Assembly: GCA_017439185.1 (NCBI GenBank)
Contig: JAFRTM010000024.1
Coordinates: 1-40,856 of the forward strand
From: Bacteroidales bacterium
GTDB taxonomy: Bacteria; Bacteroidota; Bacteroidia; Bacteroidales; P3
Reading direction: 5' to 3'
Length of the DNA: 40,856 bases
In this document: positions 15,553-36,093 of the stretch, piece by piece
Layout: the number at the start of each line of letters is the position of its first letter
Position numbering within the stretch: position 1 is the first letter of the stretch
The notes under the pieces: model-generated
Database searches by the model: none
Told to the model about the DNA's origin: nothing
Seen by the model: only the letters and a program-made list of their open reading frames with translations
Position numbers and translations under genes: made by a program

Positions 15553-16628
15553 TCTATGCGTCTCCTTTCTCTTCCAGTGAAGAAGCTGGCGGGTTGCAGT
15601 ATGTTGTCGAAAGTGTAGTATTGTATCAGCACCGTGTCGCGGTTATCGACCACGGCATATAGGCGGTTGAGGTCGAAGGTGTTGTACATCGACGTGTCGG
15701 CTATCGTCTGCAGGTCGTCGGGATTGGCATATTTCACGTAGGTCTTCACCTCATGCTCGCGACCGTTGACTTCTTTCACCCGCAGGATTGCCTTGGGGGC
15801 GTGCCGGAAGGTGGTGTCCAGCTCGGCCTGTGGCACTGCCGAGGCATATTCGTCGAAGTTCAACTTGGTAAAGCTGGCAAGCATCTGCGCCACTCTCACC
15901 GTGTCGAACCCTTCTACAAGCAGCCCTCCTGCTATCAGCTCGAAGCCCTCTCCCCTGCGCTTCACCACAAACGACTCCTGCGGCTCGCCTGTTATCTCGA
16001 GACTCACCTCGTCGATGGACTTCACCGCCACGTCCATTATCCTATGGCTCCGCCAGGCTATGGGGTCAGCAATAAACCGGGTGTTCAGTATGCCGCGGAA
16101 TCCGGGTATATATACCACCAGCGGCTCTTTGTCGCCATCCCTCAGCATATAGGTCCCCATCATATCTTGCGTCTCGTGTCCGACAAAATAGGTTGCCGTC
16201 TTCTTTTCCCTCGGGAAGAGTTTCAACTTGCCTCCGAACCAATTGATGGCATAACGGTATTCATAGACTTCCACCTTGGTGTTCGAGGCGGAAAGGTTCT
16301 TCAGCACGTTGGGCACGGCCGACTTGTTCACTTTCTCTCTTATCCTCATCTTGGTGAGAGTCTCGAGGAGCAGCCCTTCCACCATCTCTTTGCTGGCATA
16401 GCAGCTGTCGTCAACTCTCCAAGCCGAATCGCCTTCGTCGCCGTAGGTGCGCCGCAGCACCACATGATGGTCACGGTTGTCGGCTATGAAGATAGCCACT
16501 ATCGACTCTTTGTTGTCTATGTTTATCTCTTTGTAGGTACGCGGCCGGTTGCCGACTGCAGCCAGCACTCCGGCTACCACTCCCACCAACGTCACTATCG
16601 CTATTATTATCCAGTTGCGCTTGCTCAT
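15549..16628 (-). CDS. DUF4340 domain-containing membrane-anchored protein
   Basis: 359 residues. One N-terminal membrane segment (WIIIAIVTLVGVVAGVLAAVG) anchors a periplasmic domain rich in beta strands with repeated elements, as in DUF4340 proteins. This family typically lies directly downstream of gldF/gldG-type ABC transporter genes, as here, and is thought to be an accessory of that complex; its biochemical role is not known. It overlaps gldG and surE by 4 bp each, so it is co-translated with both. Confidence 0.8.
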   Translation of the reverse strand: MSKRNWIIIAIVTLVGVVAGVLAAVGNRPRTYKEINIDNKESIVAIFIADNRDHHVVLRRTYGDEGDSAWRVDDSCYASKEMVEGLLLETLTKMRIREKVNKSAVPNVLKNLSASNTKVEVYEYRYAINWFGGKLKLFPREKKTATYFVGHETQDMMGTYMLRDGDKEPLVVYIPGFRGILNTRFIADPIAWRSHRIMDVAVKSIDEVSLEITGEPQESFVVKRRGEGFELIAGGLLVEGFDTVRVAQMLASFTKLNFDEYASAVPQAELDTTFRHAPKAILRVKEVNGREHEVKTYVKYANPDDLQTIADTSMYNTFDLNRLYAVVDNRDTVLIQYYTFDNILQPASFFTGRERRRIE

Positions 16629-18439: not shown

Positions 18440-18442
18440 CGT

Positions 18443-19180
18443 TTACCTCCTCCATTTCCTGCTTTGCAACACCATACGGCAGCCCATCAGCGCCAGCACT
18501 GCCACTCCTAAGTAGTAGAACACGTCTCTCGTGTCCACCACTCCGCGGCTGATGCTCTCATAGTGCGCCAACATTCCCAGCTGTCTCACCGCCAGGTCGC
18601 CTTTGCCGAAGATGCCCAGATGATAGAGTCCTTCAAATCCCAGATACATCGCGGCACACAGCAGGGCCGCCACTATGAACGCCACTATCTGGTTGTTCGT
18701 CAAAACGCTGGCCAGAAGTCCCATCGCCACAAAGGCCGCACCTATCAGCAACAATCCCACATAACTGCCTGCCACGCTCCCGCTGTCTATGTTGCCGGCC
18801 GGCGAGCCCAGTCGGTAAACCGTGACATAATACACCAGCGTCGGCAGCAGGGTCACCGCCACCAGGGTTACCCCCGCCAGGTATTTCGCCATCACTATGC
18901 CGCCCTCGCCTATCGGCTTGGTCAGCAGCAGCTCCATGGTACCGGCCCTCTTCTCTTCGGCAAACATCCTCATCGTTATCGCGGGTATCAGGAACAGATA
19001 CAATAGCGGCGCACTGGCAAACAGGCCGTCCATCGCCGCAAATCCGTTGTCGGTTATGTTGTACGACCCTTTGAACACCCACAGCAGCAATCCCTGCAAC
19101 ACCAGGAACACCACCACTGCCAGCCATCCTGTCAGCGACGTGAAAAAGGTCGATATTTCTTTCCTATAAAGTATCCACAT
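18443..19180 (-). CDS. gldF: GldF-like ABC-2 type transporter permease
   Basis: 245 residues with six hydrophobic segments. The start MWILYRKEISTFFTSLTGW and the block FAEEKRAGTMELLLTKPIGEGGIVMAKYL are typical of ABC-2 permeases of the GldF group. It would form the membrane channel with GldG and an ATPase encoded elsewhere. It is 33 bp after the M28 homologue and 3 bp before gldG, giving the order gldF-gldG-DUF4340 common in Bacteroidota. Confidence 0.88.
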   Translation of the reverse strand: MWILYRKEISTFFTSLTGWLAVVVFLVLQGLLLWVFKGSYNITDNGFAAMDGLFASAPLLYLFLIPAITMRMFAEEKRAGTMELLLTKPIGEGGIVMAKYLAGVTLVAVTLLPTLVYYVTVYRLGSPAGNIDSGSVAGSYVGLLLIGAAFVAMGLLASVLTNNQIVAFIVAALLCAAMYLGFEGLYHLGIFGKGDLAVRQLGMLAHYESISRGVVDTRDVFYYLGVAVLALMGCRMVLQSRKWRR

Positions 19181-24215: not shown

Positions 24216-24223
24216 CAACCACT

Positions 24224-24242
24224 AATCCGAGCCTCTCGGATT
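24224..24242 (+). terminator. Short perfect hairpin after pnp
   Basis: AATCCGAG (24224-24231) pairs with CTCGGATT (24235-24242) around a 3-nt loop, starting 9 bp after the pnp stop. There is little T tract after it, so it may protect the 3' end or work together with the stronger hairpin at 24257-24296. Confidence 0.5.
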
Positions 24243-24256
24243 ATTCAAAATTCAGC

Positions 24257-24296
24257 AAAACCGCAGGGAGTTTTTCTAACACATCCCTGCGGTTTT
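24257..24296. terminator. Bidirectional terminator shared by pnp and lpxK
   Basis: AAAACCGCAGGGA (24257-24269) pairs with TCCCTGCGGTTTT (24284-24296). The T run at 24293-24296 serves pnp and the A run at 24257-24260 serves the minus-strand operon. The lpxK stop codon (24276-24278) sits in the loop, so the last lpxK codons form one arm of the hairpin. Confidence 0.8.
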
Positions 24297-25376
24297 CAGT
24301 CTGTCTAAATACGAGATATTTTCCTTCACCAACGACAAGAGTGTACCGGAAAAACTGTTGCCTCCATCTTCGTAGAAACCCACAGAAATCGGAAGATAGT
24401 AGATCGGCAGGTCGGCAAGTTCTTCCGCATACGCCCGCAGTCTCTCTATGTCCTTCTCCGTAGTCACTATTGCCTTGCTCTCTGAATTTATCGCATCGAA
24501 ACGTTGCCGCAACTGGACTATGTCGGAACGGGTGAACCGATGATGGTCAGGGAACGCGAGATGGTCCACCTTGCGGCCGTGGCACCTGAGTTCGGCCAAC
24601 AACGGAGCGCTGTCGGCTATAGCTGTCAGACACAACAAGTATCTCACATCGTTGAGCGCGCACACCCGACCATCGGCAAACGACACCGGCTTTCCATAGT
24701 CTATATATGAGAAAAACACTTTCTGGTAACTCTGCGCCTTCAACGAGGTATAAATCAGATGACGCTCAAGCGCGTTGACTTTGCGGGGGGACTTGGTCAC
24801 CACTATAATATTGGCACGAAGGTATCCTGACGACGGCTCTCTTAGATTTCCGAAAGGCAGGATGTGGTCTGCGTAGAACGGATGCCGGTAGGGGGTGAGC
24901 AGAATATTTACCGTAGGCTTGACTGTACGGTGTTGGAAACAGTCGTCAAGGACAATCACCCGTGGCGGCTGCTCCTGCGACAAAAGGCGGTTGACGCCTT
25001 CATGACGGTTGCGGCAAACTGCCGTGGTAATCTCCGGATGTCGGCGCGTTATCATCGCCACTTCGTCTCCCATTGTCTGCGACAGGTTTTCCTCAAACGG
25101 AGTGTCTCCCTCGTGCATCACAAAACCTCTACTGTTGCGCCCATACCCACGTGAGAGCAATGCGGTCTCATACTTGTCTTTTAAGAAATCTATGATATAC
25201 TCTGCCATAGGGGTCTTGCCTGTACCTCCGGTAGAGAGGTTTCCTATGCCGATAGTGACAACCGGATGTGTGTGCTGATGCAGGACTCCGAGGTCATACA
25301 GCACATTGCGCACCTTCACCACAATGGCATACCACATAGTAATCGGAAACAAAAGCCAGGAAAGGAGTCGTACCAT
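24276..25376 (-). CDS. lpxK: Tetraacyldisaccharide 4'-kinase LpxK
   Basis: 366 residues. LpxK phosphorylates the 4' position of the tetraacyl disaccharide to make lipid IVA at the inner membrane. The N-terminus has the membrane-associated helix (LLSWLLFPITMWYAIVVKVRN), followed by the P-loop GIGNLSTGGTGKTP (about 43-56). LSRGYGRNSRG, VIVLDDCFQHR and the later LAFPDHHRFT segments are all diagnostic. It is the last gene of the 13-gene minus-strand operon, 4 bp after the GT2 gene, which places an essential lipid A step under the same control as the aryl-lipid-type genes. Confidence 0.95.
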   Translation of the reverse strand: MVRLLSWLLFPITMWYAIVVKVRNVLYDLGVLHQHTHPVVTIGIGNLSTGGTGKTPMAEYIIDFLKDKYETALLSRGYGRNSRGFVMHEGDTPFEENLSQTMGDEVAMITRRHPEITTAVCRNRHEGVNRLLSQEQPPRVIVLDDCFQHRTVKPTVNILLTPYRHPFYADHILPFGNLREPSSGYLRANIIVVTKSPRKVNALERHLIYTSLKAQSYQKVFFSYIDYGKPVSFADGRVCALNDVRYLLCLTAIADSAPLLAELRCHGRKVDHLAFPDHHRFTRSDIVQLRQRFDAINSESKAIVTTEKDIERLRAYAEELADLPIYYLPISVGFYEDGGNSFSGTLLSLVKENISYLDRLKTAGMC

Positions 25377-25380
25377 AATG

Positions 25381-26124
25381 TCAGGATTTTAGTTTGCGCT
25401 TGAGACAATGAAACAACATAGACGGATAGCCGTACAATAACGCCAACAGGCACAAAAACGTATTAAGAACCGATATTCGTAGAAAATCTGCTATCGGCCG
25501 GAAATGAGACACTCTGTCTGCCGGATAATCGACCCTTACCGGCACCGACGTCAACTCCACTCCTCTCCATGCCGACAACACCAACAACGCCAGCTCTGCC
25601 TCGTACCTGTTGGAGATAAGGCCCAACGGCGGCAACGAGTCAAGGTTGTACAACCTGAATCCCGACTGGGTATCTGGCATCCTGCATAAGGTCTGCAACG
25701 CAAACCAGAAGTTGGAAAAACGGTTGGCAAACGTATTGCCCCTCGGCATATTGTCCGCCTTCAAACTCCTCGCCCCAACCACCAGCAATCCTCGCTGCTC
25801 TTTCTCAAGAATCCTGCTCGCTTTTTCTACCAACAGTGGCACATCTTCTGGGAAATGCTGAAGGTCGCTGTCTATTGTCACAACGTGGGTAAATCCCAGT
25901 TGTCGGGCTCGCTCAAAACCTCTGCACAAAGCGTAGCCTTTGCCGCGGTTCGGAGAATATGACACGACTTCTATACCTTTAGCCTCTGCAAGAATATCTA
26001 GCGTGGAATCTGTCGAACCATCGTTTACCACTATAACATTGGAACAAACCGCAAGAGTGCGCTCAATCACCTCCTGAAGTGTGCCGCCGTTATTATAGGT
26101 AGGTATAACGATGCAATATTTCAT
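25381..26124 (-). CDS. Family 2 glycosyltransferase, DPM1/ArnC-like
   Basis: 247 residues. GT-A fold features are CIVIPTYNNGGTLQEVIERT, VIVVNDGSTDST and THVVTIDSDLQHFPED, whose Asp cluster binds nucleotide sugar and metal. The domain resembles dolichyl-/polyprenyl-phosphate sugar transferases. A single hydrophobic segment near the C-terminus (VLNTFLCLLALLYGYPSML) probably contacts the membrane. The sugar and acceptor are not predictable. It overlaps the LolA-like gene by 4 bp. GT2 and LolA-like genes are frequent members of aryl-polyene/flexirubin loci. Together with the SMR-like protein at 26737 it could make and flip a lipid-linked sugar (inference). Confidence 0.85.
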   Translation of the reverse strand: MKYCIVIPTYNNGGTLQEVIERTLAVCSNVIVVNDGSTDSTLDILAEAKGIEVVSYSPNRGKGYALCRGFERARQLGFTHVVTIDSDLQHFPEDVPLLVEKASRILEKEQRGLLVVGARSLKADNMPRGNTFANRFSNFWFALQTLCRMPDTQSGFRLYNLDSLPPLGLISNRYEAELALLVLSAWRGVELTSVPVRVDYPADRVSHFRPIADFLRISVLNTFLCLLALLYGYPSMLFHCLKRKLKS

Positions 26125-26720
26125 CGGCTTGCTTTCTGGTTGCGAAACACTATGACTGTGGCATTGCCGTCTTTCTCTTGCAACTCCAACCGCTGGACTA
26201 ACGTATTGCGCTTGTCAAACGTCACCGTCACCGACTGGAACATTCTCTGCATATCTCGCCTTACAGGTTTGAGTTCTGCCCTATAGGTGTTTCCTTCGTC
26301 ATATATCTTACTTGAAAACAACCTCTCATTAAAAACACTCCCTCCCACAAAACTTTCCCTTATCATCGTAGCCATAGCTTTCGACATTCTGTTGCCGCTC
26401 TTGCGCTCGCGGCCGTCTCCTGTGACGACAGAGAGGTTATCTCCCTTGATCACAAGAGTAGTGCTTTGGGGCGATGTATAACTCCACCTCACCTCGTCTG
26501 GAGCCATAAAACTAAGTGTGCCTTTCGACTCTATCGGTGCCGCAAGCATCGTCGAAGTTCGAGTCTGCACAAAATCCGCCTTCAAGCCCTTTAGGTTTTT
26601 GCTTGCCGATGACAATTTGGTCACAACGGCCGAACGCTGGTCTCCGGTCAATTCACTCGCCTGAGCAACACAAACCACCGTCAAGCACAACAAGCACAAT
26701 AGGGACAATATTCGTTTCAT
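26121..26720 (-). CDS. LolA-like outer-membrane lipoprotein carrier homologue
   Basis: 199 residues. The signal peptide is ILSLLCLLCLTVVCVAQ. The mature part has the LolA-type pattern: KNLKGLKADFVQTRTSTMLAAPIESKGTLSFMAPDEVRWSY is spread over consecutive strands, followed by TLVIKGDNLSVV. LolA binds lipidated cargo in the periplasm. A LolA homologue embedded in this biosynthetic operon, not beside general lolA partners, suggests dedicated transport of the operon's lipid product to the outer membrane, as proposed for aryl-polyene clusters. Confidence 0.85.
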   Translation of the reverse strand: MKRILSLLCLLCLTVVCVAQASELTGDQRSAVVTKLSSASKNLKGLKADFVQTRTSTMLAAPIESKGTLSFMAPDEVRWSYTSPQSTTLVIKGDNLSVVTGDGRERKSGNRMSKAMATMIRESFVGGSVFNERLFSSKIYDEGNTYRAELKPVRRDMQRMFQSVTVTFDKRNTLVQRLELQEKDGNATVIVFRNQKASR

Positions 26721-26736
26721 ATGACAACTGCAATAT

Positions 26737-27090
26737 TTACTTCATAATAAAGAAACACCCCACAACAATCAATCCCACTCCCAACCAGCGCAACCACGGC
26801 ACTTGCTCTCCAAATACCAAAATTGCAGCCACCATTCCAAAGATATAACTGAGCGCCGTGAGTGGATGAGCCTGGCTAAACGGGAAATGCCTCAATATGT
26901 ATAGCCAGAGCACGCTTGCTATACCGAACGAAGCACCGCAGGCCAAGAACCACCAATCGACCAATGCCGCCCGGAAATAACTCCACGACCAGCTAAAAGA
27001 CGGCATCTTCTGCATCGCCAACTTGAGAAACACGTTCCCGCCGGCGAGGAAAAGGGTCTGCACTGCTACGAGTAGAACTAAACGGAACAT
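26737..27090 (-). CDS. Small EamA/SMR-like four-helix membrane protein
   Basis: 117 residues with about four hydrophobic helices, half the size of a normal EamA transporter and similar to small multidrug-resistance or ArnE-type proteins. Visible features are LVLLVAVQTLFLAGGNVFLKLAM at the start, AHPLTALSYIFGMVAAILVFGE and a final WLGVGLIVVGCFFI; the PLTALSY and FGE spacing is typical of DMT helices. It probably functions as a dimer. ArnE/ArnF flip an aminosugar-polyprenyl lipid, so a lipid-sugar flippase next to the GT2 gene is plausible but unproven. Confidence 0.75.
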   Translation of the reverse strand: MFRLVLLVAVQTLFLAGGNVFLKLAMQKMPSFSWSWSYFRAALVDWWFLACGASFGIASVLWLYILRHFPFSQAHPLTALSYIFGMVAAILVFGEQVPWLRWLGVGLIVVGCFFIMK

Positions 27091-27103
27091 ATTATCGTGA
27101 GTA

Positions 27104-29350
27104 TTATTTTCGTGTCAAAAGTATTAGTGACTGGACTCCATCCTCATCGCCTCCTTCCACCAAAAGGCATTCCGGGCCCACAATCTTCGGTGCAGAGTCA
27201 TCAATATTTAACGGGCGCGCAACTTCTCCTGCCGACAAGCAACAGGCTGCAGCATACACACCCAACGCCTCGGCCGAGAATCCTTCTCCAAATAAGTGCT
27301 TATACTGCAGCAAAGGAACCTCCCCATACACCTTCCGGGCACTCGCAAGCAAGCGTGCATCGTGGGTCTCTCTACCATTCAGGCCCAGCAACACTCCCGC
27401 GACTTTATCCAACGACAACCCTGCCTTCGCCAGCAACCGCAACAGTGCCAAGTGCTTTTCCTCATCGGTTGGGCAATGCTGCATCTCGACTCCGGACAGT
27501 TTACACATGGCACGGGACAAATTCTCTCCCCTATCGCTCAACAGAAACGCCGCCGAGCACTCGCCTGCCGTAACTCCCTGGTTTCCCAAAAATCCGTGCT
27601 TAGCAAAAATCCGGAAGAAACCTTCTGTCATCTCGTCCTGTGCGGTGACAAGGGCTGTGGACAGATACCCCAGTCGCTGCTGTAACCATATATCATATAG
27701 CGAAGCGGCAAACGATGACCCGTTGTGGGAATAGGTGGCATTATAGCCGTGATTGACAGTCCTTATTGCTATTGTGGACGCCGCGGTGTTGTGTGTGGAT
27801 TGCATAAAGCAGGCAGGTTTCACGTAACCTTCCCCGTCATCATATAGGCTGTCGAGAATCTGCTCGGTATATTCTATGCTTCCAAGCCCCGTCCCTGCCA
27901 CTATGGCATCTGGCACACAATCTGCTGTCGCTTTTCCTGCCGTGACCGCTGCACGTCTCAGCATAAGTCCCATACGCCGTGCTTCGAGTGGTTTCAGGTA
28001 CTCTCCGAAGGATGGATCTTCTGCTTTCTCAAATGGAGTATTATGAATCTTTGGCGATGTCATCCAATCTCTGCTGAGCGGCTGCTGCAATGACACCTGC
28101 TCGGCTGCACATATATAAAGCTGTCGGGAATCTGGCATTGCCGGCATTGCCACTCTCACTTCCGGTGCGGCAAAAAGCAACGCCGTATCATTACCGCCAA
28201 AGGCAAACGAGTTGCTCAGCACATAATGCAATCGGACATCTCTCATTGTATGGCATACCGGCTTGACACATCCTTCTCCCGGCGTGTCGCAGTGCAAATT
28301 GGCCGGCACAAAGCCATGCTCCACAGCCAAGAGGCTGATAACCGACTCTATCGCTCCCGACGCACTGGTCGTATGTCCTGTAAAGGATTTTGTCGAAGAG
28401 ACAGGAACTCGGCAGTCTTCGCCAAACAAACGGAGCAATGCGGCACTTTCTGTAGCGTCGTTATTTTCTGTACCCGTTCCGTGCGCATTAATATAGTCCA
28501 CTTGCGATGGTTCAATTCCCGCCATCTCCAGCGCCTTCTTCATGGCCCTGTAAGGACCTTCCCCATTCTCTGAGGTTGCTGTCTGATGACTCGCGTCACA
28601 GGCATTGCCGTAACCTGCCAACAACGCCTTTGCCGACACTCCTCTCTGTCTTGCGTGAGTTGCCGATTCCAGCACGAGATACGCAGCTCCCTCTCCAAGG
28701 TTCAAGCCTCCTCGGCTTGCATCGAACGGTCGGCACAATCCTTTGTCAAGAATCATCAACGACCCAAAGCCGTTAAGGTGCAACCGCGTCAGACACTCCG
28801 TTCCTCCAACCACCACACAATCTGCCTCCCCTGTCTTTATCATATTGGCGCCGAGTACCACCGCATTGGCTGCCGACGAGCAGGCGGTGGACAAGGTGGT
28901 CGCCATACGCACAGGACCTACCTCTTCAACTATCTGCTCTGTACAGGCTCCACACGTATAGGTTTTTATATAATCGTTATAGTCGTCATTTCCGAGCCAG
29001 TCGCGATAATATTTCTCTCCCATGTCCATTCCTCCCACCGTGGTCCCCGACACTACCGACACCTTCCCCATCTCGTCTCTGCCAATGCCGGCCTCTTCCA
29101 GCGCCTCTTTCATCGCGACAATACCCATCAACGCAGACCGCGAGATAGGTTTCTTCCCTACTCCTGCGAGCAACCTGAGCTCTTCATTGTCCAATGGCAC
29201 TTCGCCTACAGGAAATTCGGTCTGGGTCGTGTCCAGAAAACGGACCGGACCTATTCCGGCTCGCTCCTCGAGCAAGGCTTGCAAGGTAGCCTCCTTGCCG
29301 ACACCCAACGCCGATATGACACCGGCTCCTGTTATCCAGACCTCCTCCAT
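27104..29350 (-). CDS. Tandem beta-ketoacyl synthase fusion (active KS plus KS-like domain)
   Basis: 748 residues. Residues 1 to about 395 form a FabF-type ketosynthase with a complete triad: Cys157 (STACSSAAN), His290 (NAHGTGTENND) and His326 (KSFTGHTTSASG). Residues about 408-748 form a second thiolase-like domain resembling the Ketoacyl-synt_2 type of aryl-polyene loci. Its nucleophile position reads FMQSTHNTAAS, with Gln-Ser-Thr and no Cys, so it cannot condense in the normal way and may act as a chain-length or partner subunit. KS and chain-length-type proteins usually come from separate genes; here they are one chain. The gene lies 9 bp after the ACP gene. Substrates are predicted to be ACP-bound aryl or acyl chains. 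Confidence 0.9.
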   Translation of the reverse strand: MEEVWITGAGVISALGVGKEATLQALLEERAGIGPVRFLDTTQTEFPVGEVPLDNEELRLLAGVGKKPISRSALMGIVAMKEALEEAGIGRDEMGKVSVVSGTTVGGMDMGEKYYRDWLGNDDYNDYIKTYTCGACTEQIVEEVGPVRMATTLSTACSSAANAVVLGANMIKTGEADCVVVGGTECLTRLHLNGFGSLMILDKGLCRPFDASRGGLNLGEGAAYLVLESATHARQRGVSAKALLAGYGNACDASHQTATSENGEGPYRAMKKALEMAGIEPSQVDYINAHGTGTENNDATESAALLRLFGEDCRVPVSSTKSFTGHTTSASGAIESVISLLAVEHGFVPANLHCDTPGEGCVKPVCHTMRDVRLHYVLSNSFAFGGNDTALLFAAPEVRVAMPAMPDSRQLYICAAEQVSLQQPLSRDWMTSPKIHNTPFEKAEDPSFGEYLKPLEARRMGLMLRRAAVTAGKATADCVPDAIVAGTGLGSIEYTEQILDSLYDDGEGYVKPACFMQSTHNTAASTIAIRTVNHGYNATYSHNGSSFAASLYDIWLQQRLGYLSTALVTAQDEMTEGFFRIFAKHGFLGNQGVTAGECSAAFLLSDRGENLSRAMCKLSGVEMQHCPTDEEKHLALLRLLAKAGLSLDKVAGVLLGLNGRETHDARLLASARKVYGEVPLLQYKHLFGEGFSAEALGVYAAACCLSAGEVARPLNIDDSAPKIVGPECLLVEGGDEDGVQSLILLTRK

Positions 29351-29359
29351 AGTCTCTTG

Positions 29360-29617
29360 CTACTTGCTCCGATGTTGCTCTATGTATTCCGCCATCACTC
29401 TCACCGACTGGAACACGTCCTTGGCCGCCTTGGGATCTTGCAACTTGATGCCGTATTTCTTCTCCATAAGCACTATCAACTCCAATGCGTCGATAGAATC
29501 CAGCCCTAAACCTTCATTGAACAATGGAGCGTCGTTGTCTATATCTTCGGGCTTCATCCCTTCAAGGTTCAAAACCTCTATGATCTGCTGTTTGAGTGTT
29601 TGAATTAATTCTTCCAT
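29360..29617 (-). CDS. Acyl carrier protein of the biosynthetic operon
   Basis: 85 residues with the phosphopantetheine site Ser41 in GLGLDSIDALELIVLMEK. It is acidic, as expected. It is unlikely to be the housekeeping acpP because it is embedded between ketosynthase-type genes and carries the LGLDSIDALEL variant seen in specialised lipid or polyene systems. Its start overlaps the preceding 205-residue gene by 13 bp, indicating coupled translation. It would carry the growing chain for the neighbouring ketosynthases. Confidence 0.93.
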   Translation of the reverse strand: MEELIQTLKQQIIEVLNLEGMKPEDIDNDAPLFNEGLGLDSIDALELIVLMEKKYGIKLQDPKAAKDVFQSVRVMAEYIEQHRSK

Positions 29618-30222
29618 TCTATCAATGTTTTTATATCGTTTTCTATGTTGTCGTCTCTTCCCACCAATGCCATACGGACCTCGAAATGTTCCTCGGCATC
29701 ACACTCCACCCATCCTACGATGGCCGACTGTGTTTCCTTATCGGCGAACAACGCCGACACCTGTACGGCCATTGCTTGGCTATTCTTCTCGGGGAGGACC
29801 AGAAAATTAGTCTCCCCATAATATTTGTTGCGTATCGCTATCTCGCCCGTGACGATATTTGCCAGCGTGTAAACAAACAAAGCGGGACTTGGAAAGTAGT
29901 TCTCCTCGTCTGATATCGTCGCCTGATAACGGGTATCTGTATATAACGAGCCGCTCTCATTGAACAACACTATCGCCCTTTCTGCCGTCCCGTAGCATTT
30001 CCTCTGCTCCACATCCCTGCTGCCCGACTCTTTGGCCAGCAACAGCTCCGACGCGACAAATCCGACCTTACACAGGCTGTCCATCTTGAAATACTTCATA
30101 TAATTTCCGACATAACCCCTATATATCTCGTCTATCATTCCCATTCCCTGAGCCTCCACGCCAATACGTTCTCCATCTACGACAACGCCTCTCGTCTCGT
30201 CAAGAATCACCCAATGCCTCAT
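29605..30222 (-). CDS. Thiolase-fold-like small protein of the aryl-lipid operon
   Basis: 205 residues, not confidently assigned. The segment YFPSPALFVYTLANIVTGEIAIRNKYYG followed by TNFLVLP resembles the region around the nucleophile in Ketoacyl-synt_2 domains (compare FMQSTHNTAASTIAI in the 748-residue neighbour). No Cys is present at that point, and the usual C-terminal His motifs are missing. It may be a truncated KS-like partner that stabilises the ketosynthase complex. It overlaps the upstream KS by 4 bp and the ACP gene by 13 bp, so it is a real, coupled gene. The chain ends in an acidic stretch (NIENDIKTLIEWKN). Confidence 0.65.
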   Translation of the reverse strand: MRHWVILDETRGVVVDGERIGVEAQGMGMIDEIYRGYVGNYMKYFKMDSLCKVGFVASELLLAKESGSRDVEQRKCYGTAERAIVLFNESGSLYTDTRYQATISDEENYFPSPALFVYTLANIVTGEIAIRNKYYGETNFLVLPEKNSQAMAVQVSALFADKETQSAIVGWVECDAEEHFEVRMALVGRDDNIENDIKTLIEWKN

Positions 30223-31367
30223 ACTCCCCCTCCTTTCCTATATAACATAACCGCGTTGCATCCTCCGAACCCCGAGAGCATCTTCACAAACGACGGTCTG
30301 TCCGTTGTCGTCAACTCTCCGTTTATCTTTATATTGCCACTCACTCCTTTCTTCCCGAATCCTCTCGTCGCCAGCACCACACCCTCTTCCACCGCCTTCA
30401 TCGACACCAGACACTCCAACACTCCGGCCGCTCCCATAGTATGTCCCAGATAGCCTTTCAGACTATTTACCGGCACATCCGTGATACCAGCTCTCTCCAA
30501 GGCTATCGACTCCATCTCGTCGTTGTACATCGTCGCCGTGCCGTGCGCATTCACAAACGCCAACTCCTCCATCCCAACGCTGGCCAGCACAGTCCTTAAA
30601 GCCCTATACGACCCTTCTCCTGTACGCGAAGGTCCGGATATATGATTGGCGTCATTACGTATCGCCCCTCTCTCCAGCACCCACCTGCCTGAAGCTTCGT
30701 CAGAAAGAGTCAGAACCATCGCAGCGGCGGCCTCTCCAAGATTCAATCCTTTACGCTCCGCATCGAATGGGCGGCACCCTTCGGGCGACAAAGCCTTGAA
30801 CGACTGAAATCCCGACACTATAAATTCCGTCAGCACGTCACATCCGACCACCACCGCATAACGGCAGATCTTCTGCTCCAACATTCGCTGCGCCACAATC
30901 TGCGCACACAGTCCCGACGTACAAGCGTTGCTCACCACCACCGGATCATTGCCGTTGCCCAATTCCCTCACAACTCTACGAGCCCCTTCTCCAAGGTTCA
31001 GTCTTCTCTCGAACTTGTGTCGAACTTGTGTCCTAGTTGTGTCGAACCTGTGTGCTAGTTGCTCTATATTCCCTTTTGTAGTAGAAAACACGAATGCCAC
31101 ATCACCTCTCTTACCGTCTATTCCCGCCTCCTGCAATGCAGCACGTGCCGACCTCAACGACAACGACTCGAAACGGGTAAGGCAGTCGTCTGGTCCCTCT
31201 TCTTCCCAATTCATCATTGAGCCGACAAAAGGTTCCTCGAGGTTCCACAGCTTCCGGGTGCGGAGACTGCTCTCGCCTCGTGCCAAAGCCTCATATACGG
31301 AATCCACCGAATTCCTGAGTGGCGATATTATGCTTCCTCCTATCTTTACAACCATCGTTTCTTCCAC
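30219..31367 (-). CDS. Beta-ketoacyl-ACP synthase (FabF-like)
   Basis: 382 residues. The triad is complete: Cys149 (SNACTSGL), His275 (NAHGTATMYND) and His309 (LKGYLGHTMGAAG). GLNLGEAAAAMVL and the C-terminal GFGGCNAVMLYR are also typical. It should condense malonyl-ACP with an acyl or aryl-ACP. Residues about 102-120 are encoded by five 11-bp repeat units (31009-31063) in what is normally a variable surface loop. The first ATG gives a 22-bp overlap with the thioesterase gene; the ATG four codons later (MVVKIGGS) is an equal alternative. The N-terminus is shortened compared with FabF. Confidence 0.9.
   Translation of the reverse strand: MEETMVVKIGGSIISPLRNSVDSVYEALARGESSLRTRKLWNLEEPFVGSMMNWEEEGPDDCLTRFESLSLRSARAALQEAGIDGKRGDVAFVFSTTKGNIEQLAHRFDTTRTQVRHKFERRLNLGEGARRVVRELGNGNDPVVVSNACTSGLCAQIVAQRMLEQKICRYAVVVGCDVLTEFIVSGFQSFKALSPEGCRPFDAERKGLNLGEAAAAMVLTLSDEASGRWVLERGAIRNDANHISGPSRTGEGSYRALRTVLASVGMEELAFVNAHGTATMYNDEMESIALERAGITDVPVNSLKGYLGHTMGAAGVLECLVSMKAVEEGVVLATRGFGKKGVSGNIKINGELTTTDRPSFVKMLSGFGGCNAVMLYRKGGGV
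31009..31063. repeat. 11-bp tandem repeat inside the ketosynthase gene
   Basis: The units are TCGAACTTGTG (31009-31019 and 31020-31030), TCCTAGTTGTG (31031-31041), TCGAACCTGTG (31042-31052) and a diverged TGCTAGTTGCT (31053-31063). They encode residues about 102-120 of the KS. A net gain of three units (33 bp) keeps the frame, which could explain why the gene is still open. Confidence 0.75.
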
Positions 31368-31777
31368 TCTTTATAGAAGGCCGGCGACGACACTTCCAGT
31401 TGATAATTCCTGTCCATAAACACCTGCACCGAACTGCCTGTTGTCAGCACTTCCCCCGTCTCGCTGTCTTTTATCTCGTAGTCGAACAATATCTTCGCCG
31501 CCTCACATGGCCGGTACGTCACCGTCAGCAGTGCCTTCCTGCCATATTCCATCGGCTTGCGGTAATGAAACGCGATATCCACAACCGGCACAAAATAGCC
31601 TTGCCCGTATATAGTCAGATAGTCCAGTCCGTACTTACGCCCGAACGCCTCACGTCCGTCCTCGAAGTACTGCATATAATTTCCGTGCCACACCACCTTC
31701 ATCGAGTCCACCTCGCTAAACCTCACCTCTATCTCTACCGTTTCGCTAAGCCGCTTTTCCATCTTCCCAAAAATCAA
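31346..31777 (-). CDS. 4HBT hotdog-fold acyl-CoA/ACP thioesterase
   Basis: 143 residues from the first ATG; the ATG at 31762 (MEKRLSETVE) is more likely because it shortens the overlap with the upstream acyltransferase gene. The YbgC/4HBT pattern EVRFSEVDSMKVVWHGNYMQY is clear, with the Asp in the catalytic position, followed by FGRKYGLDYLTI. Similar proteins appear in aryl-polyene loci, where they may release or edit chains, or act as a dehydratase-like hotdog. Substrate is unknown. Confidence 0.87.
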   Translation of the reverse strand: MIFGKMEKRLSETVEIEVRFSEVDSMKVVWHGNYMQYFEDGREAFGRKYGLDYLTIYGQGYFVPVVDIAFHYRKPMEYGRKALLTVTYRPCEAAKILFDYEIKDSETGEVLTTGSSVQVFMDRNYQLEVSSPAFYKEWKKRWL

Positions 31778-32609
31778 AATAGTTAAACCATTGCTCGGGA
31801 TATTTCCTCAAGACTTCCTCGAGCACTTCTGCGTATTCCTTCACGTCCTTCACCTCTCTGATGATTATCCTATACCGCCTCATTCCTTCCTTCATAACGA
31901 ATATCGCCAACATCTCTGCCCCGTGACTCCTCGCCACAGCAAACGGTCCTGCCGGAAACGACGCCTCCTCTCCGAAGAAAGGACAACGTTCGACCTTTTT
32001 TGAACCGAATATCCTGTCTGCAGGAATGCTCACGATCTGCGATGACGACAACGCATTGTGTATGGCGAATATATGACTCATGTCGTCACTCGTCACTATC
32101 ATGCCGATATTGTTTCTTGCCAGTATCTTCGCACGGTTATCCATCACCGTCTGAGACTCTCCCCCGTAGACAAGCGCGTTGAACTGCTTGTTCTTCGACA
32201 CCAGATAATAACCGGCCATCTCATAGCATCCCACATGGGCACTCAGTATCACAAAACCGTCTTCCTTCGCGTCATATTGCTCGAACAAGTCGTAACGGTC
32301 CAGCTCGATATTGAACTTCTTGCCGGCGAACACCGCAAAACGGTCCAGCACCACTTGTCCGAACCTGAAAAAATTCTCACACATATAGACAACCGACTTC
32401 ACCCTACCGTAGCCCATACGCCTGCGATAAAAGTCGTATATCGCCTTGCGTCCCTTCCTTCCGAACAAGATATAGAACGGCACCACCATCAACATCACTC
32501 CGTACAGCAGCCACAACGGCAGATAGCGGTAAAGCCACACCAGTGCGCGCTGCATCCACTCCGTACCGTCGGTACGTCCCTGCCAATGTCTATTGCCTTG
32601 CTCCGCCAT
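31746..32609 (-). CDS. LpxL/HtrB-like acyltransferase
   Basis: 287 residues. A membrane helix lies near 27-50 (LPLWLLYGVMLMVVPFYILFG). The lysophospholipid/lipid A acyltransferase motif HX4E is present as His125 to Glu130 (SAHVGCYE). Lipid A enzymes normally read HxGNWE there, so the Cys-Tyr variant suggests a different acceptor. It may acylate a glycolipid or esterify the aryl chain made by the operon. It overlaps the thioesterase gene by up to 32 bp and lies 12 bp after the methyltransferase gene. Confidence 0.85.
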   Translation of the reverse strand: MAEQGNRHWQGRTDGTEWMQRALVWLYRYLPLWLLYGVMLMVVPFYILFGRKGRKAIYDFYRRRMGYGRVKSVVYMCENFFRFGQVVLDRFAVFAGKKFNIELDRYDLFEQYDAKEDGFVILSAHVGCYEMAGYYLVSKNKQFNALVYGGESQTVMDNRAKILARNNIGMIVTSDDMSHIFAIHNALSSSQIVSIPADRIFGSKKVERCPFFGEEASFPAGPFAVARSHGAEMLAIFVMKEGMRRYRIIIREVKDVKEYAEVLEEVLRKYPEQWFNYFDFWEDGKAA

Positions 32610-32621
32610 TTTGATATTTTC

Positions 32622-33722
32622 TTAGTGGTCGCGTTTTCTGCATATCATAATACTGTGGCCGTGGCCCAGGTTGTCCACTATCTCTTCCACTTCCAGGCCC
32701 GACGCCTCCACTATCCGCGCCATATCATCCGAGTGGTACATCTTGCTCGTACCGTTGGCTATAGCCGTAAAGTATAGACTCGTCATAGTGAGACAGAACG
32801 CTGCCGTCTCATATTTCTGCCGATCCCAGAATGTCTCCATAATATACAGGTGGCTTCCCTCGTCCATTATCTGGCAAGCACGCTCCAGGATACTCTGAAC
32901 CTCATCCTCGCCGAAGCAGTCCAGGAATTGGCTCATCCATATAACGTCGAAATGTTTCTGCGGAAACTGCGACTGCCCGTCGAGCAGGTTCATGCCATAG
33001 CCACCAATTCGTTCAGCCCCTTTCTTGCCTGCCACAAACTTTCTCATCATCTCCAACTGCTGCGGCAAGTCCACAATAGTCACCTCCACCTCGTCACTAT
33101 AGTCCACGCACCTCAAAGCCCAGCGGCCCGTGTTACCTCCCACATCAAGCAGACTCTTCGTCCCTCTCGAGAAGACCACCTCCAACGCCTGGTCAAACGA
33201 ATTGTCGGAATAGAAATGGTCGAAGCCGAACCAGCTCTTCTGTACCTCTTCCGGCAGCTGCGACAGCCCTTCGTACACCGTCGGCCAGTCGCCGAAATGT
33301 TCCAGTCCTGCCGGACGTCCTTCCTTCAGCGATTCTTCCAACCTGAACAGACCTTCATAGTTGACATCGTGGTTGAATGCCATATTCACCTTTACCAGTT
33401 CGTCGGTCAACAGAAACCAGCCTGCCTTGCTCAAGGTAAACCTGTCGGTAGTCCTATCCACTTTTACCGTACCTATACACAGCGACGCTTCCATCATCAC
33501 CTTCACGGCGTAGTTGCTCAGCCCTGTCGCCTGCGACACCTCCTGCTCGGTCATTCCGTTCTCGCTATTCCTCAACAGTTCCAATATTCCGAACTTCACC
33601 ATCAACCGCGACACCTGGAACACCATAGGGCCGAATGCGATCCATTCAGCCAGCCGCTGTGCCTCACGTGCCCCCTGTTCGTCTCGGGTGTACCGCTTGT
33701 CCAATTCTGCCGACAGATTCAT
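32622..33722 (-). CDS. SAM-dependent O-methyltransferase
   Basis: 366 residues. The N-terminal part (about 20-115) is the helical dimerisation/winged-helix domain of plant-type O-methyltransferases (FGILELL, QEVSQATGLSNYAVKVMMEASL). The C-terminal Rossmann domain has SAM motif I LLDVGGNTGRWAL, acidic VTIVDLPQQLEMMR, and FDVIWMSQFLDCF. A phenolic hydroxyl from the tyrosine-derived starter is a plausible target, since aryl-polyene head groups are often O- or C-methylated; this is inference from context. Gaps are 12 bp on both sides. Confidence 0.87.
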   Translation of the reverse strand: MNLSAELDKRYTRDEQGAREAQRLAEWIAFGPMVFQVSRLMVKFGILELLRNSENGMTEQEVSQATGLSNYAVKVMMEASLCIGTVKVDRTTDRFTLSKAGWFLLTDELVKVNMAFNHDVNYEGLFRLEESLKEGRPAGLEHFGDWPTVYEGLSQLPEEVQKSWFGFDHFYSDNSFDQALEVVFSRGTKSLLDVGGNTGRWALRCVDYSDEVEVTIVDLPQQLEMMRKFVAGKKGAERIGGYGMNLLDGQSQFPQKHFDVIWMSQFLDCFGEDEVQSILERACQIMDEGSHLYIMETFWDRQKYETAAFCLTMTSLYFTAIANGTSKMYHSDDMARIVEASGLEVEEIVDNLGHGHSIMICRKRDH

Positions 33723-33734
33723 TTCCCTTTATTT

Positions 33735-34466
33735 TTAGGTGTACAATCCTCCGTTTATTGATATTGCCTGACCTGTGATGTAGGCTGCCTCGTCGCTGGC
33801 GAGGAACGCCACCAGGGCCGCCACCTCTTCGGCGGTGCCGAAACGCTTCATCGGTATGGTCTGCTTCAGTTCATCGACATTGAGGTCCTTGGTCATATCG
33901 GTAGCTATGAATCCCGGTGCTATGGCGTTCACCGTCACTTTGCGGGCCGCCACTTCCAGTGCCAGCGCTTTCGTGGCACCTATCAGTGCTGCCTTGGCTG
34001 CCGTATAGTTGGTCTGTCCGGGCATACCTTTCAGGCCCGACAGAGACGCCATATTGATGATTCGTCCGTTACGTTTCTTCACCATCGTGGTTACCACGCG
34101 GCGGGTGATGTAGAAGAATCCGTTCATCGTGGTGTTGACCACCTTGTCCCATTCCTCGTCGCTCATGAACACCATGATGTTGTCGCGACGGATTCCTGCG
34201 TTGTTAACCAATGCCGAGATATATTCTCCCGGATGGGCAGCCTCCCATTGGTCGAGAGCTTGGTTGATAGCCTCTTTGCTGCTCACGTCGAACGGCAACA
34301 ACTCGGCCTGGCCTCCTTCGGATTCTATCTCCTGCTTCGCCGCCTCGGCTGCCGCTTGGTTCGATTGGTAGTTCAGCACCACGGTGTAACCCTCTTTTGC
34401 CAGCCGCTTGGCCACAGCCTTGCCGATACCTCGCGAGCCTCCTGTTATCAATGCATATTTGCTCAT
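33735..34466 (-). CDS. fabG: 3-oxoacyl-ACP reductase, FabG-like
   Basis: 243 residues, a standard short-chain dehydrogenase. Visible are the cofactor loop TGGSRGIGKAV, NNAGIRRDN, catalytic Ser in MASLSG, and the TNYTAAKAAL Tyr-Lys pair. The C-terminus AAYITGQAISINGGLYT is typical of FabG. It reduces 3-ketoacyl-ACP with NADPH. Position after TAL and before the methyltransferase indicates a pathway-specific copy, corresponding to ApeQ-type reductases. Gap to TAL is 29 bp. Confidence 0.94.
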   Translation of the reverse strand: MSKYALITGGSRGIGKAVAKRLAKEGYTVVLNYQSNQAAAEAAKQEIESEGGQAELLPFDVSSKEAINQALDQWEAAHPGEYISALVNNAGIRRDNIMVFMSDEEWDKVVNTTMNGFFYITRRVVTTMVKKRNGRIINMASLSGLKGMPGQTNYTAAKAALIGATKALALEVAARKVTVNAIAPGFIATDMTKDLNVDELKQTIPMKRFGTAEEVAALVAFLASDEAAYITGQAISINGGLYT

Positions 34467-34495
34467 ATCTGTTATGTTTTATTTTTCTGCAACCA

Positions 34496-36022
34496 TTATT
34501 TTTTGTTTCTCAGCCACTCTTCCACCCTTGCTATGTCGTCGTAGAACGGTGTGTCCTCTACGAATTTCGGCACCATAGCCCTCACCTGCCCGTATGCCTC
34601 ACGTGTGGCCGGAGCCAGCTTGCCGCTTATCTCCAGACAGTCGGTGGCTTGCGCCAAGGCGATGTATTGTATTGCCAGCACCTGATAGCAGTTGTCTATC
34701 ACACGTTTGGTGAGCAGCGCCGTATTGGTTCCCATGCTCACAATGTCCTGGTTGTCGTTGTTGTTGGGTATCGAATGCACATAGTTGGGCATAGCCAGAG
34801 TCTGACATTCCGCCGTGGTGCTGGTGGCTGTAAACTGGCACGCCTGCATGCCGTAGTTCAGCCCGAGCACTCCCATATTCAGGAACGGCGGTAATATCTC
34901 GTTTATGCGGTCGTGGAACAAGTAGTTCAGTTGTCGTTCCGCAGTCATCGCCAGTCTCACCATTGCTATCTTCACCTTGTCCTCTTCGAGCGATATGTAG
35001 TCACCGTGGAAGTTGCCCCCGTGATACACGTTCTTGCTCTCCGGATCCACTATCGGGTTGTCACAAGCGCTCACCAGCTCTTCCTCTATGACCCTGCGGG
35101 AATTCTCCAGCGTCTCGGCGATAGGTCCCAATATCTGTGGGGTGCAGCGCAGCGAGTAATAGGCTTGCACCTTGTCTTTGAACACACGCTCTTCTTTGTG
35201 GCCTCCGTCGTACAGCAGGTGTTCCCTTTTCTTCAGGCACTGGCTACCTTTCGCCAGTTTCCTCATCCTGGCAGCCACCTGCTGCTGGCCGCTGTGGCGG
35301 CGGCAGCCGTTCAGCACTTCCGACATCCAGTCGTCGTACGAGCCCGCTATCTCGTTCATCCACACTCCTGCCAGCTCCGCCCATCCGAGCAGCCGCTCGG
35401 CATAGTGCTGGTTCACCACCGATATTCCGGTCATCACGCTGGTGCCATTAGTTATCGAAAGACCTTCGCGGATATATATCTTCAGCGGCTCCAGCCCGTT
35501 TTCCTTCATCACCTCGGCGGTCGCTCGCCATTCTCCCTTCCAGTGCACCTTGCCTTCGCCAATCAGCGTCAGCGCTATATGTGCCAGCTGCACCAGGTCG
35601 CCGCTGGCTCCCACGCTGCCGTGCTGGGGAATAAAGGGATAGATGCCCCTATTGATAAACTCCACCAGGAGTCGTGCCACGTCGCTGTGCACGCCGCTCT
35701 TGGCCTGCATCACCGTTCCCAGCCGCGCTATCATGGCAGCTTTCACATAGATGTCCTCAAGCGGTTCTCCGGCGCCTGTCGAGTGGCTACGGATGATGTT
35801 GTACTGCAACTCCTTCAGCCGCTCGTCATCGACCCGCCACTGGGCCATGGGACCGAATCCCGTGTTGATGCCGTAGATAATCTTCTCCTTGGCGAATGAT
35901 TGCAGAAAACGGTAGCACTCGTCAACTTTCTTCACCATATCGTCCGTGAGGGCCATTTTTTCGCCTCCAAACAATATCTTCTCTACGTTCTCGTAGCCAA
36001 ATATGTTCCTATTCCCTTCCAT
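34496..36022 (-). CDS. Aromatic amino acid ammonia-lyase, probably tyrosine ammonia-lyase
   Basis: 508 residues. The MIO cofactor triad is Ala139-Ser140-Gly141 (GSVGASGDLVQL). Catalytic Tyr50 lies in IYGINTGFGPMAQ, and the selectivity region reads LQYNIIRSHS. VYHGGNFHGDYISLE and HSIPNNNDNQDIVSMGTN complete the family pattern. The sequence closely follows my memory of flavobacterial tyrosine ammonia-lyases from flexirubin clusters. It would deaminate tyrosine to 4-coumarate. Histidine lyase is the main alternative, but no hutU, hutI or formiminotransferase gene is nearby, while fabG, KS, ACP and methyltransferase genes follow. It is the first gene of the operon, under the promoter at 36086-36093. 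Confidence 0.88.
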   Translation of the reverse strand: MEGNRNIFGYENVEKILFGGEKMALTDDMVKKVDECYRFLQSFAKEKIIYGINTGFGPMAQWRVDDERLKELQYNIIRSHSTGAGEPLEDIYVKAAMIARLGTVMQAKSGVHSDVARLLVEFINRGIYPFIPQHGSVGASGDLVQLAHIALTLIGEGKVHWKGEWRATAEVMKENGLEPLKIYIREGLSITNGTSVMTGISVVNQHYAERLLGWAELAGVWMNEIAGSYDDWMSEVLNGCRRHSGQQQVAARMRKLAKGSQCLKKREHLLYDGGHKEERVFKDKVQAYYSLRCTPQILGPIAETLENSRRVIEEELVSACDNPIVDPESKNVYHGGNFHGDYISLEEDKVKIAMVRLAMTAERQLNYLFHDRINEILPPFLNMGVLGLNYGMQACQFTATSTTAECQTLAMPNYVHSIPNNNDNQDIVSMGTNTALLTKRVIDNCYQVLAIQYIALAQATDCLEISGKLAPATREAYGQVRAMVPKFVEDTPFYDDIARVEEWLRNKK

Positions 36023-36085: not shown

Positions 36086-36093
36086 CAAATATA
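36086..36093 (-). promoter_or_regulatory. -7 promoter element of the 13-gene aryl-lipid-type operon
   Basis: On the minus strand TATATTTG (36086-36093) fits TAnnTTTG. No TTG is found at -33, so an activator may be needed. The predicted leader is about 55 nt. The following stretch, 36094-36190, is AT-rich with nothing recognisable. Confidence 0.55.

What the first reader, a model, noticed from the sequence alone, without database searches (positions are those of the whole stretch)
24276..36022. Compact TAL-initiated aryl-polyene/flexirubin-like operon linked to lipid A synthesis
Thirteen same-strand genes with overlaps or gaps under 30 bp run from one promoter to one terminator: ammonia-lyase, FabG, O-methyltransferase, LpxL-like acyltransferase, hotdog thioesterase, KS, KS-like fragment, ACP, KS-KS fusion, SMR-like, LolA-like, GT2, lpxK. 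Known aryl-polyene and flexirubin loci combine KS/ACP/FabG/hotdog/LolA/GT2/acyltransferase genes, and flexirubin loci use tyrosine ammonia-lyase for a 4-coumaroyl starter. Here no coumarate ligase, clear dehydratase or MMPL exporter is visible, and lpxK is included, so the product may be a different aryl lipid, perhaps glycosylated and coupled to outer-membrane biogenesis. The product inference is mine.
Basis: partly seen in the sequence, partly recalled or inferred. Interest (0 to 1): 0.82.

Follow-up and report, generated by a model that had tools for sequence, protein, structure and literature searches.

The report
Flexirubin-type pigment operon, scattered pathway
The genes are most of a known bacterial pathway for tyrosine-derived pigment lipids (flexirubin-type aryl polyenes); the steps that seemed to be missing are encoded elsewhere in the same genome, so this is a familiar system in a scattered arrangement.

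Summary
In detail: thirteen tightly packed minus-strand genes at 24276-36022. Four proteins pass curated NCBIfam cut-offs for flexirubin biosynthesis: FlxA tyrosine ammonia-lyase, FlxB, FlxJ-family methyltransferase, LolA2. The "missing" functions lie elsewhere in the genome. C18 holds FlxY, the coumarate-ligase family (709.6 bits, cut-off 520), beside an MMPL-acyltransferase fusion. C26 holds a FabB-like ketosynthase, a second ACP and two complementary dehydratase-like proteins. C11 holds a second MMPL with a LolA-like protein. Strong FlxY matches occur in exactly the 7 of 37 same-genus genomes with the locus. Same-genus G014 looks intermediate: its main locus lacks the ketosynthase and thioesterase, and a mini-cluster carries an 87% identical ketosynthase. 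Scattering is not unique: 13 of 57 related loci with at least 8 kb after the lyase lack KS1 or the KS-CLF gene there. Linkage to lipid A is not supported: lpxK lies on other contigs in the other six flx-bearing genomes of the genus. No dialkylresorcinol synthase was found, so the anchor is open. Known kind. No chemistry was tested.

The parts
34496..36022 (-). FlxA-type tyrosine ammonia-lyase, 508 aa; ASG (MIO) motif at residue 139, 'RSH' at 78, NQD at 424
   Evidence: NCBIfam FlxA_rubin_TAL 838.5 bits, cut-off 700; Pfam Lyase_aromatic; motifs
33735..34466 (-). FlxB-type 3-ketoacyl-ACP reductase (SDR), 243 aa
   Evidence: NCBIfam FlxB_rubin_SDR 394 bits, cut-off 340
32622..33722 (-). FlxJ-family SAM methyltransferase, 366 aa, probably acting on the ring (inference)
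   Evidence: NCBIfam FlxJ_fam_MTase 599.4 bits, cut-off 560; the methyl of C. pinensis flexirubin comes from methionine (PMC3992019)
31746..32609 (-). LpxL-fold acyltransferase, cluster-specific subfamily, 287 aa
   Evidence: Pfam Lip_A_acyltrans 44.8 bits; the six other flx-bearing genomes of the genus also hold a better-scoring LpxL elsewhere
31346..31777 (-). 4HBT hotdog thioesterase, 143 aa (start codon uncertain; overlaps the gene before it)
   Evidence: Pfam 4HBT_2
30219..31367 (-). Ketosynthase KS1, ApeO-like, with Cys, His and His motifs, 382 aa
   Evidence: Best PDB match 6qsp_A, E 9.2e-34; motifs
29605..30222 (-). KS-like fragment, ApeC-like partial chain-length factor, 205 aa; fused to KS1 in several relatives
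   Evidence: AlphaFold model pLDDT 86.8; Foldseek hits to KS/CLF folds including ApeC 6qsp_B, E 1.6e-4; fusions of 552-579 aa
29360..29617 (-). Acyl carrier protein, 85 aa, DSID motif at residue 40
   Evidence: NCBIfam PRK09184.1 86.4 bits, cut-off 70; motif
27104..29350 (-). Fused KS (Cys, His, His motifs) and CLF-like half without the Cys motif, 748 aa
   Evidence: Pfam ketoacyl-synt, Ketoacyl-synt_C and Ketoacyl-synt_2; motifs
26737..27090 (-). EamA/SMR-like small membrane protein, nearest to ArnF/ArnE flippase subunits, 117 aa
   Evidence: Pfam EamA; ArnF 42.5 bits, below its cut-off 99
26121..26720 (-). LolA2 flexirubin-type periplasmic carrier, 199 aa
   Evidence: NCBIfam LolA2_flexi 149.9 bits, cut-off 125
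25381..26124 (-). GT2 glycosyltransferase, nearest to polyprenyl-phosphate-type sugar transferases, 247 aa
   Evidence: Pfam Glycos_transf_2; AglJ 75 bits, below its cut-off 325
24276..25376 (-). lpxK, the only lpxK found in the genome; probably an unrelated neighbour that may be co-transcribed
   Evidence: TIGR00682 137.1 bits, cut-off 91.95; on other contigs in the other six flx-bearing genomes of the genus
36086..36093 (-). Possible -7 promoter element TATATTTG
   Evidence: consensus recalled; motif not enriched in the window
24223..24243 (-). Terminator-like hairpin after lpxK
   Evidence: 13 such sites found against 9.5 expected in the region, so weak

Best explanation
This is the larger part of a flexirubin-type aryl-polyene pathway. 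FlxA would deaminate tyrosine to 4-coumarate, and FlxY (contig C18) would activate it. KS1 with its ApeC-like partner, the fused KS-CLF and the FabB-like FlxC' (C26) would extend it with malonyl units on two ACPs. FlxB would reduce each keto group, and a two-subunit dehydratase (C26), in which one subunit supplies His and the other Glu, would make the double bonds. The FlxJ-family enzyme would methylate the ring. The acyltransferases and GT2 would attach the polyene acid to a lipid, and MMPL with LolA2 would carry it to the outer membrane. The pathway is spread over four places (C9 window, C26, C18, C11), most simply because a single locus was broken up, its in-locus ketosynthase being lost and replaced by one of a different clade. 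Shown: family memberships, gene positions, co-occurrence of FlxY and MMPL with the locus, an intermediate-looking genome (G014), the KS phylogeny. Inferred: every reaction, the product, membrane location, the order of losses, and joint operation of the four places.
For: Four window proteins and C18 FlxY pass curated flexirubin cut-offs. Same-genus genomes with the locus: 7 of 37 (TAL in 6; G013 by other genes). FlxY scores above 300 bits in the same 7 and at most 88.6 in the other 30 (Fisher p 9.7e-8, not corrected for relatedness). MMPL matches below E 1e-30 are in the same 7. Canonical G008, G011, G019 and G023 carry FlxC, ACP2, FabZ-like and MMPL in the locus. G014 lacks FlxC and the thioesterase there and has a mini-cluster whose FlxC is 87% identical to the C26 copy; G039 is also split. 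FlxC of G000 and G014 falls in a 9-row clade (100/100) apart from that of the canonical same-genus genomes. Dehydratase halves complement: Gln at the recalled His position in 51 of 54 rows (3 gaps) with Glu in 54 of 54; the FabZ-like partner has His in 23 of 23 and Glu in 2 of 23. [quoted passage not shown] KS1's best PDB hit is 6qsp_A, and 6qsp_B is ApeC.
Against: No chemistry or expression data. No DarB-type KS III found, so the product cannot be called flexirubin. G054 has FlxY, a mini-cluster KS and ACP and other KS genes but no TAL match, so the set does not always imply tyrosine. In 13 of 57 related loci the lyase is not followed within the fetched stretch by both KS1 and the KS-CLF; in 4 of these no cluster gene follows and in 7 only FabG or FabG and a LolA, so the lyase alone does not prove a linked locus. 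The DH subunit's match to the solved heterodimer is not significant (6qsr_B, E 0.41), and the FabZ-like subunit matches ordinary FabZ better than 6qsr_A. Ancient duplication with differential loss could also explain the FlxC tree. Roles of the methyltransferase, SMR and GT2 are guesses. The genome is a 28-contig assembly, 92% complete. The TAL tree places the window with G011 only weakly (88, not starred).
Confidence: 0.85

Rival explanations
1. The compact operon works alone and makes a short, non-polyene aryl lipid (for example a coumaroyl or beta-hydroxy aryl lipid).
For: The operon has no ligase, dehydratase, second ACP or MMPL, and gene gaps leave no room for them.
Against: Candidates for all of these are in the same genome. 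FlxY and MMPL track the locus across the genus. G014 keeps DH, ACP2, FabZ-like and MMPL beside the corresponding operon.
Confidence: 0.07
2. The operon is functionally tied to lipid A: the polyene acid is put on a lipid A-type acceptor by the LpxL-fold enzyme, and lpxK is co-regulated for that purpose.
For: lpxK follows GT2 by 4 bases. The only Lip_A_acyltrans match in G000 is the cluster copy, whereas 34 of 37 same-genus genomes have a copy of 78 bits or more. A glycolipid anchor, potentially lipid A or a derivative, was proposed for the E. coli aryl polyene (PMC8253772, passages).
Against: lpxK is on a different contig from the locus genes in G008, G011, G013, G014, G019 and G023. After GT2 come MMPL (7), FlxY (1) or a 349-aa ORF (1) in 9 relatives read there. 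No lpxK match in the 80 related loci, though only L066 and L069 hold more than 1 kb after GT2. The other six flx-bearing genomes of the genus also have a better-scoring LpxL, so its lack in G000 may be an assembly gap.
Confidence: 0.06
3. The lyase is a histidine ammonia-lyase and the locus serves catabolism.
For: Motif 1 reads SH as in HAL (recalled), and C. pinensis FlxA is also HAL-like at motif 1 (PMC3992019).
Against: It passes the FlxA cut-off and falls below that of HutH. The genome has a second lyase homologue at C13, 34% identical. C. pinensis FlxA deaminated Tyr and Phe but gave no detectable product with His.
Confidence: 0.02

Closest known systems
Flexirubin gene cluster of Chitinophaga pinensis, flxA-flxY (PMC3992019: parts 1 and 2 of 5 of the text, and passages)
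   Same: FlxA TAL, FlxB reductase, FlxY ligase, several KS, dehydratases, thioesterases, LolA, glycosyltransferase, exporter; NCBIfam also names FlxJ
   Different: There one polyene cluster plus a separate darA/darB cluster; here four places and no DarB-type KS III found; lpxK adjacency here
Bacteroidales aryl-polyene loci, e.g. Phocaeicola vulgatus L077, Hoylesella saccharolytica L028, Prevotella micans L037; a Bacteroides xylanisolvens cluster is reported similar to the C. pinensis flexirubin cluster (PMC12940132, passages)
   Same: Gene families and most of the gene order
   Different: These three keep a FlxC-type KS, an ACP2 (L028, L077; detected in L037 too) and DH inside the locus
Proteobacterial APE clusters (E. 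coli apeA-R, PMC8253772; Acinetobacter ApeO:ApeC, ApeR, ApeI/ApeP, PMC8358021 and PMC8041823; passages read)
   Same: KS:CLF, FabB-like second KS, two ACPs, heterodimeric dehydratase, KR, thioesterase, acyltransferases, LolA-like and RND export
   Different: Starter there is 4-hydroxybenzoate, loaded by ApeH, not tyrosine-derived coumarate

Membership tests
Flexirubin-type aryl-polyene gene set | FlxA tyrosine ammonia-lyase | tested here: met
   838.5 bits, cut-off 700
Flexirubin-type aryl-polyene gene set | FlxY 4-coumarate CoA ligase | tested here: met
   Not in the window; G000:C18:66360-67652, 709.6 bits, cut-off 520
Flexirubin-type aryl-polyene gene set | FlxB reductase, FlxJ-family methyltransferase, LolA2 | tested here: met
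   394, 599.4 and 149.9 bits, all above cut-offs
Flexirubin-type aryl-polyene gene set | Dehydratase and MMPL/RND exporter | tested here: met
   C26 hotdog pair (assignment as dehydratase rests on family resemblance and residues, no curated cut-off passed except Pfam FabA for one); MMPL at C18 and C11
Flexirubin sensu stricto (dialkylresorcinol ester) | DarB-type KS III and DarA | tested here: not met
   PF08541: 0 matches in G000, while 11 of 14 control genomes ring. No FabH was seen either, so incompleteness (92%) is possible. DarA not tested
Aryl polyene (APE) pathway | KS:CLF pair of the ApeO:ApeC kind | tested here: met
   KS1 best hit 6qsp_A; KSf fold hits KS/CLF including 6qsp_B, TM-score 0.51 by query length; fused KS-CLF
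Aryl polyene (APE) pathway | Heterodimeric dehydratase with one active site | tested here: inconclusive
   Complementary residues; 6qsr_A E 3.6e-5 but 6qsr_B E 0.41 (that 6qsr is ApeI/ApeP is recalled)
Aryl polyene (APE) pathway | Coloured polyene product in the outer membrane | not testable with these tools
   Needs chemistry

The most novel reading that the evidence does not exclude
In this lineage a flexirubin-type pathway was broken into four unlinked modules. Its FabB-like ketosynthase, second ACP and dehydratase were replaced by a module of a different clade, dialkylresorcinol synthesis is absent, and the operon captured the only lpxK in the genome, so that the polyene acid is now loaded onto a lipid A-like glycolipid and made in step with lipid A.
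Probability: 0.07. Interest if true: 0.6.

Novelty: new member of a known kind. Interest (0 to 1): 0.27.

Why it matters
It shows that cluster-by-cluster genome mining can call a pathway incomplete, or suggest a new product, when the missing steps lie elsewhere in the genome. It gives a traceable series (canonical locus, G014, scattered form) for how a secondary-metabolite cluster is taken apart with a core ketosynthase of another clade. It also flags a widespread tyrosine-to-lipid pathway in gut Bacteroidales whose product and lipid anchor I did not see reported in the listings and passages from eight paper searches.

Tried and rejected
A self-contained novel aryl-lipid operon: rejected after candidates for the missing steps were found in the same genome. 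Linkage to lipid A: rejected on unlinked lpxK and the separate acyltransferase subfamily. HAL/catabolism: rejected. Contamination of C26, C18 or C11 from another lineage: their fetched stretches have GC 0.52-0.53, like the window (0.53), while G039 and G054, which share the FlxC clade, are 0.39-0.42; composition cannot exclude a close relative. Contig breaks as the cause of the split: the window operon is bounded by pnp and POR; the C26 cluster (105718-110009 of 152579) and C18 set (66360-71973 of 105233) are internal to their contigs; the C11 pair (68413-71595 of 76218) ends about 4.6 kb from its contig end.

Paper searches for Bacteroidales or split flexirubin loci listed 5, 2 and 3 papers; of these I read passages of PMC8863827 and PMC9769736 only, so absence from print is not shown. 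Led nowhere: the promoter motif is not enriched; the 205-aa protein has no Pfam or NCBIfam match and no significant PDB sequence match (best E 0.025). The ORF tiling missed the esterase between MMPL and FlxY on C18; it was read.

It also called the scattering unusual; a recount shows it is commoner, and I lowered interest from 0.3 to 0.27 for that.
Full report
Check of the observation. Thirteen minus-strand ORFs fill 24276-36022, with gaps of 29 bases or fewer and five overlaps. The flanks are pnp and a POR oxidoreductase gene. NCBIfam names four of them as flexirubin proteins above curated cut-offs: FlxA TAL, FlxB, FlxJ-family methyltransferase and LolA2. Of the 57 kept loci with at least 8 kb after the lyase, 44 carry KS1 and the KS-CLF downstream. 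Of those 44, 40 also have a FlxC-type KS, 42 a DH-type gene and 41 an ACP2-type gene. The other 13 lack KS1 or the KS-CLF in the stretch: in 4 no cluster gene follows, in 7 only FabG or FabG and a LolA, and 2 (L029, L063) have part of the cluster.

What the window lacks, and where it is. In canonical relatives the order is TAL, FabG, FlxC (a FabB-like KS), methyltransferase, ACP2, acyltransferase, dehydratase, thioesterase, KS1, KS-like fragment, ACP, KS-CLF, SMR, LolA, FabZ-like, GT2, MMPL (single genes were not matched in some rows). The window lacks FlxC, ACP2, both dehydratase-like genes and MMPL. The same genome carries at C26 a run FlxC', ACP, hotdog DH, thioesterase, FabZ-like, CrtD-like oxidoreductase. 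At C18 it carries an MMPL-acyltransferase fusion, 49-55% identical to the in-locus MMPL of four relatives, then an esterase and FlxY. At C11 it carries a second MMPL followed by a LolA2-like protein that is below the family cut-off (67.9 bits against 125).

Evidence that these belong together. Among 37 same-genus genomes, FlxA-type TAL is in 6. G013, 83% complete, has the locus acyltransferase, MMPL and FlxY but no FlxA-type TAL match. FlxY above 300 bits is in exactly these 7; the best score in the other 30 is 88.6 (Fisher p 9.7e-8 without correction for kinship). MMPL matches below E 1e-30 are in the same 7. The mini-cluster type of FlxC is in G000 and G014 but not in the four canonical same-genus genomes, which have the in-locus type.

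How it came about. G014 lacks FlxC in its main locus, where a 174-aa ORF sits, and the thioesterase; it keeps ACP2, DH, FabZ-like and MMPL, and has a mini-cluster like C26 with the KS 87% identical. G039, of another family, is also split. A tree of 60 rows (59 FlxC and an outgroup) puts the FlxC of G000, G014, G039, G054, G056, G057, P. vulgatus and two others in one clade (100/100), apart from that of G008, G011, G019 and G023. So the C26 copy is not simply the genus's own in-locus gene moved; replacement by a copy of another clade is the simplest reading, and old duplication with differential loss is the alternative. The composition of C26 is host-like, so the event is not recent or is from a similar-GC donor. 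The TAL tree places the window with G011 with modest support only.

Mechanism. KS1 has the Cys, His and His motifs and its best solved match is 6qsp_A; chain B of that entry is ApeC. The 205-aa fragment models at pLDDT 86.8 and matches KS/CLF folds, the ishigamide CLF entry first and ApeC tenth, with TM-scores of 0.5-0.6 by query length. In the second half of the KS-CLF fusion no Cys motif was found. FlxC' is closest to FabB, like ApeR, a FabB-like KS reported to raise throughput (PMC8358021, passages). The two hotdog proteins are complementary at the catalytic positions recalled from FabZ: one has Gln for His but keeps Glu, the other keeps His but mostly not Glu. An APE cluster is reported to include heterodimeric ApeI/ApeP dehydratases with a single active site (PMC8041823, passages). 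From the work on C. pinensis FlxA and FlxY (PMC3992019), tyrosine to coumarate to coumaroyl-CoA is the expected start. Everything after that is inference.

Lipid A. lpxK was found in 57 of 61 genomes, nearly always once. In the other six flx-bearing genomes of the genus it is on a different contig from the locus genes; for the fragmented G013 this is weak evidence. In 9 relatives read past GT2 the next gene is MMPL in 7 (G008, G011, G014, G019, G023, G056, G057), FlxY in G039 and a 349-aa ORF in G054. No lpxK match was seen in the 80 kept loci, but only two of them hold more than 1 kb after GT2. In G036 and G009 lpxK sits by homologues of window genes at 2823-5377. The cluster acyltransferase scores 43-61 bits against Lip_A_acyltrans, while a separate copy of 78-110 bits exists in 34 of 37 same-genus genomes. 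G000 shows only the cluster copy, which may be a gap in a 92% complete assembly. The link is positional, and among the genomes examined it was seen only here.

Against the reading. No DarB-type KS III was found, nor any FabH, so classical flexirubin is not claimed. G054 has much of the set without a TAL match. Product, anchor and function are untested.

Comparison with what is known. Flexirubin clusters are reported in five of six Bacteroidetes classes, 268 clusters (PMC9248904, passages). A Bacteroides xylanisolvens arylpolyene cluster is reported similar to that of C. pinensis (PMC12940132, passages). Flexirubin-homologue clusters are mentioned for Prevotella oralis (PMC6469967, passages). 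244 aryl-polyene clusters are reported from Bacteroidetes of the sheep and goat gut (PMC9769736, passages). LolA2 and LolB2 of flexirubin loci are described in PMC11885536 (passages). This is therefore a new member of a known kind with a scattered layout.

Noticed in passing
L165, L166 (G054): A genome with FlxY, FlxC', KS, LolA and GT2 genes but no TAL match: possibly a flexirubin-type pathway with a different starter acid.
   Followed up: partly
L020, L031, L032, L033, L043, L065, L074, L075, L076, L079, L080: FlxA-type lyase loci with at least 8 kb downstream but no ketosynthase genes there (only FabG, or FabG and a LolA, or nothing): other scattered layouts, or other uses of the lyase.
   Followed up: partly
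G000 whole genome: No KS III C-terminal domain (PF08541) match at all, so neither FabH nor DarB was seen; either an assembly gap or unusual fatty-acid initiation.
   Followed up: no
window 16625-19180: Genes matching ABC_transp_aux/DUF7088 (16625-18439) and an ABC-2 membrane protein (18443-19180), resembling GldG and GldF (names recalled).
   Followed up: no
L162, L164: The mini-cluster has a FabG beside it in G014 and G039, so it may be a reusable elongation module.
   Followed up: partly
L171, L172: In G056 and G057 the in-locus MMPL protein is 1279-1285 aa, longer than the 1078-1152 aa proteins of the same-genus genomes.
   Followed up: no
window 25381-26124 and 26737-27090: A small EamA/ArnF-like membrane protein near a polyprenyl-phosphate-type GT2 suggests a flipped lipid-linked sugar as part of the anchor (inference).
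   Followed up: no
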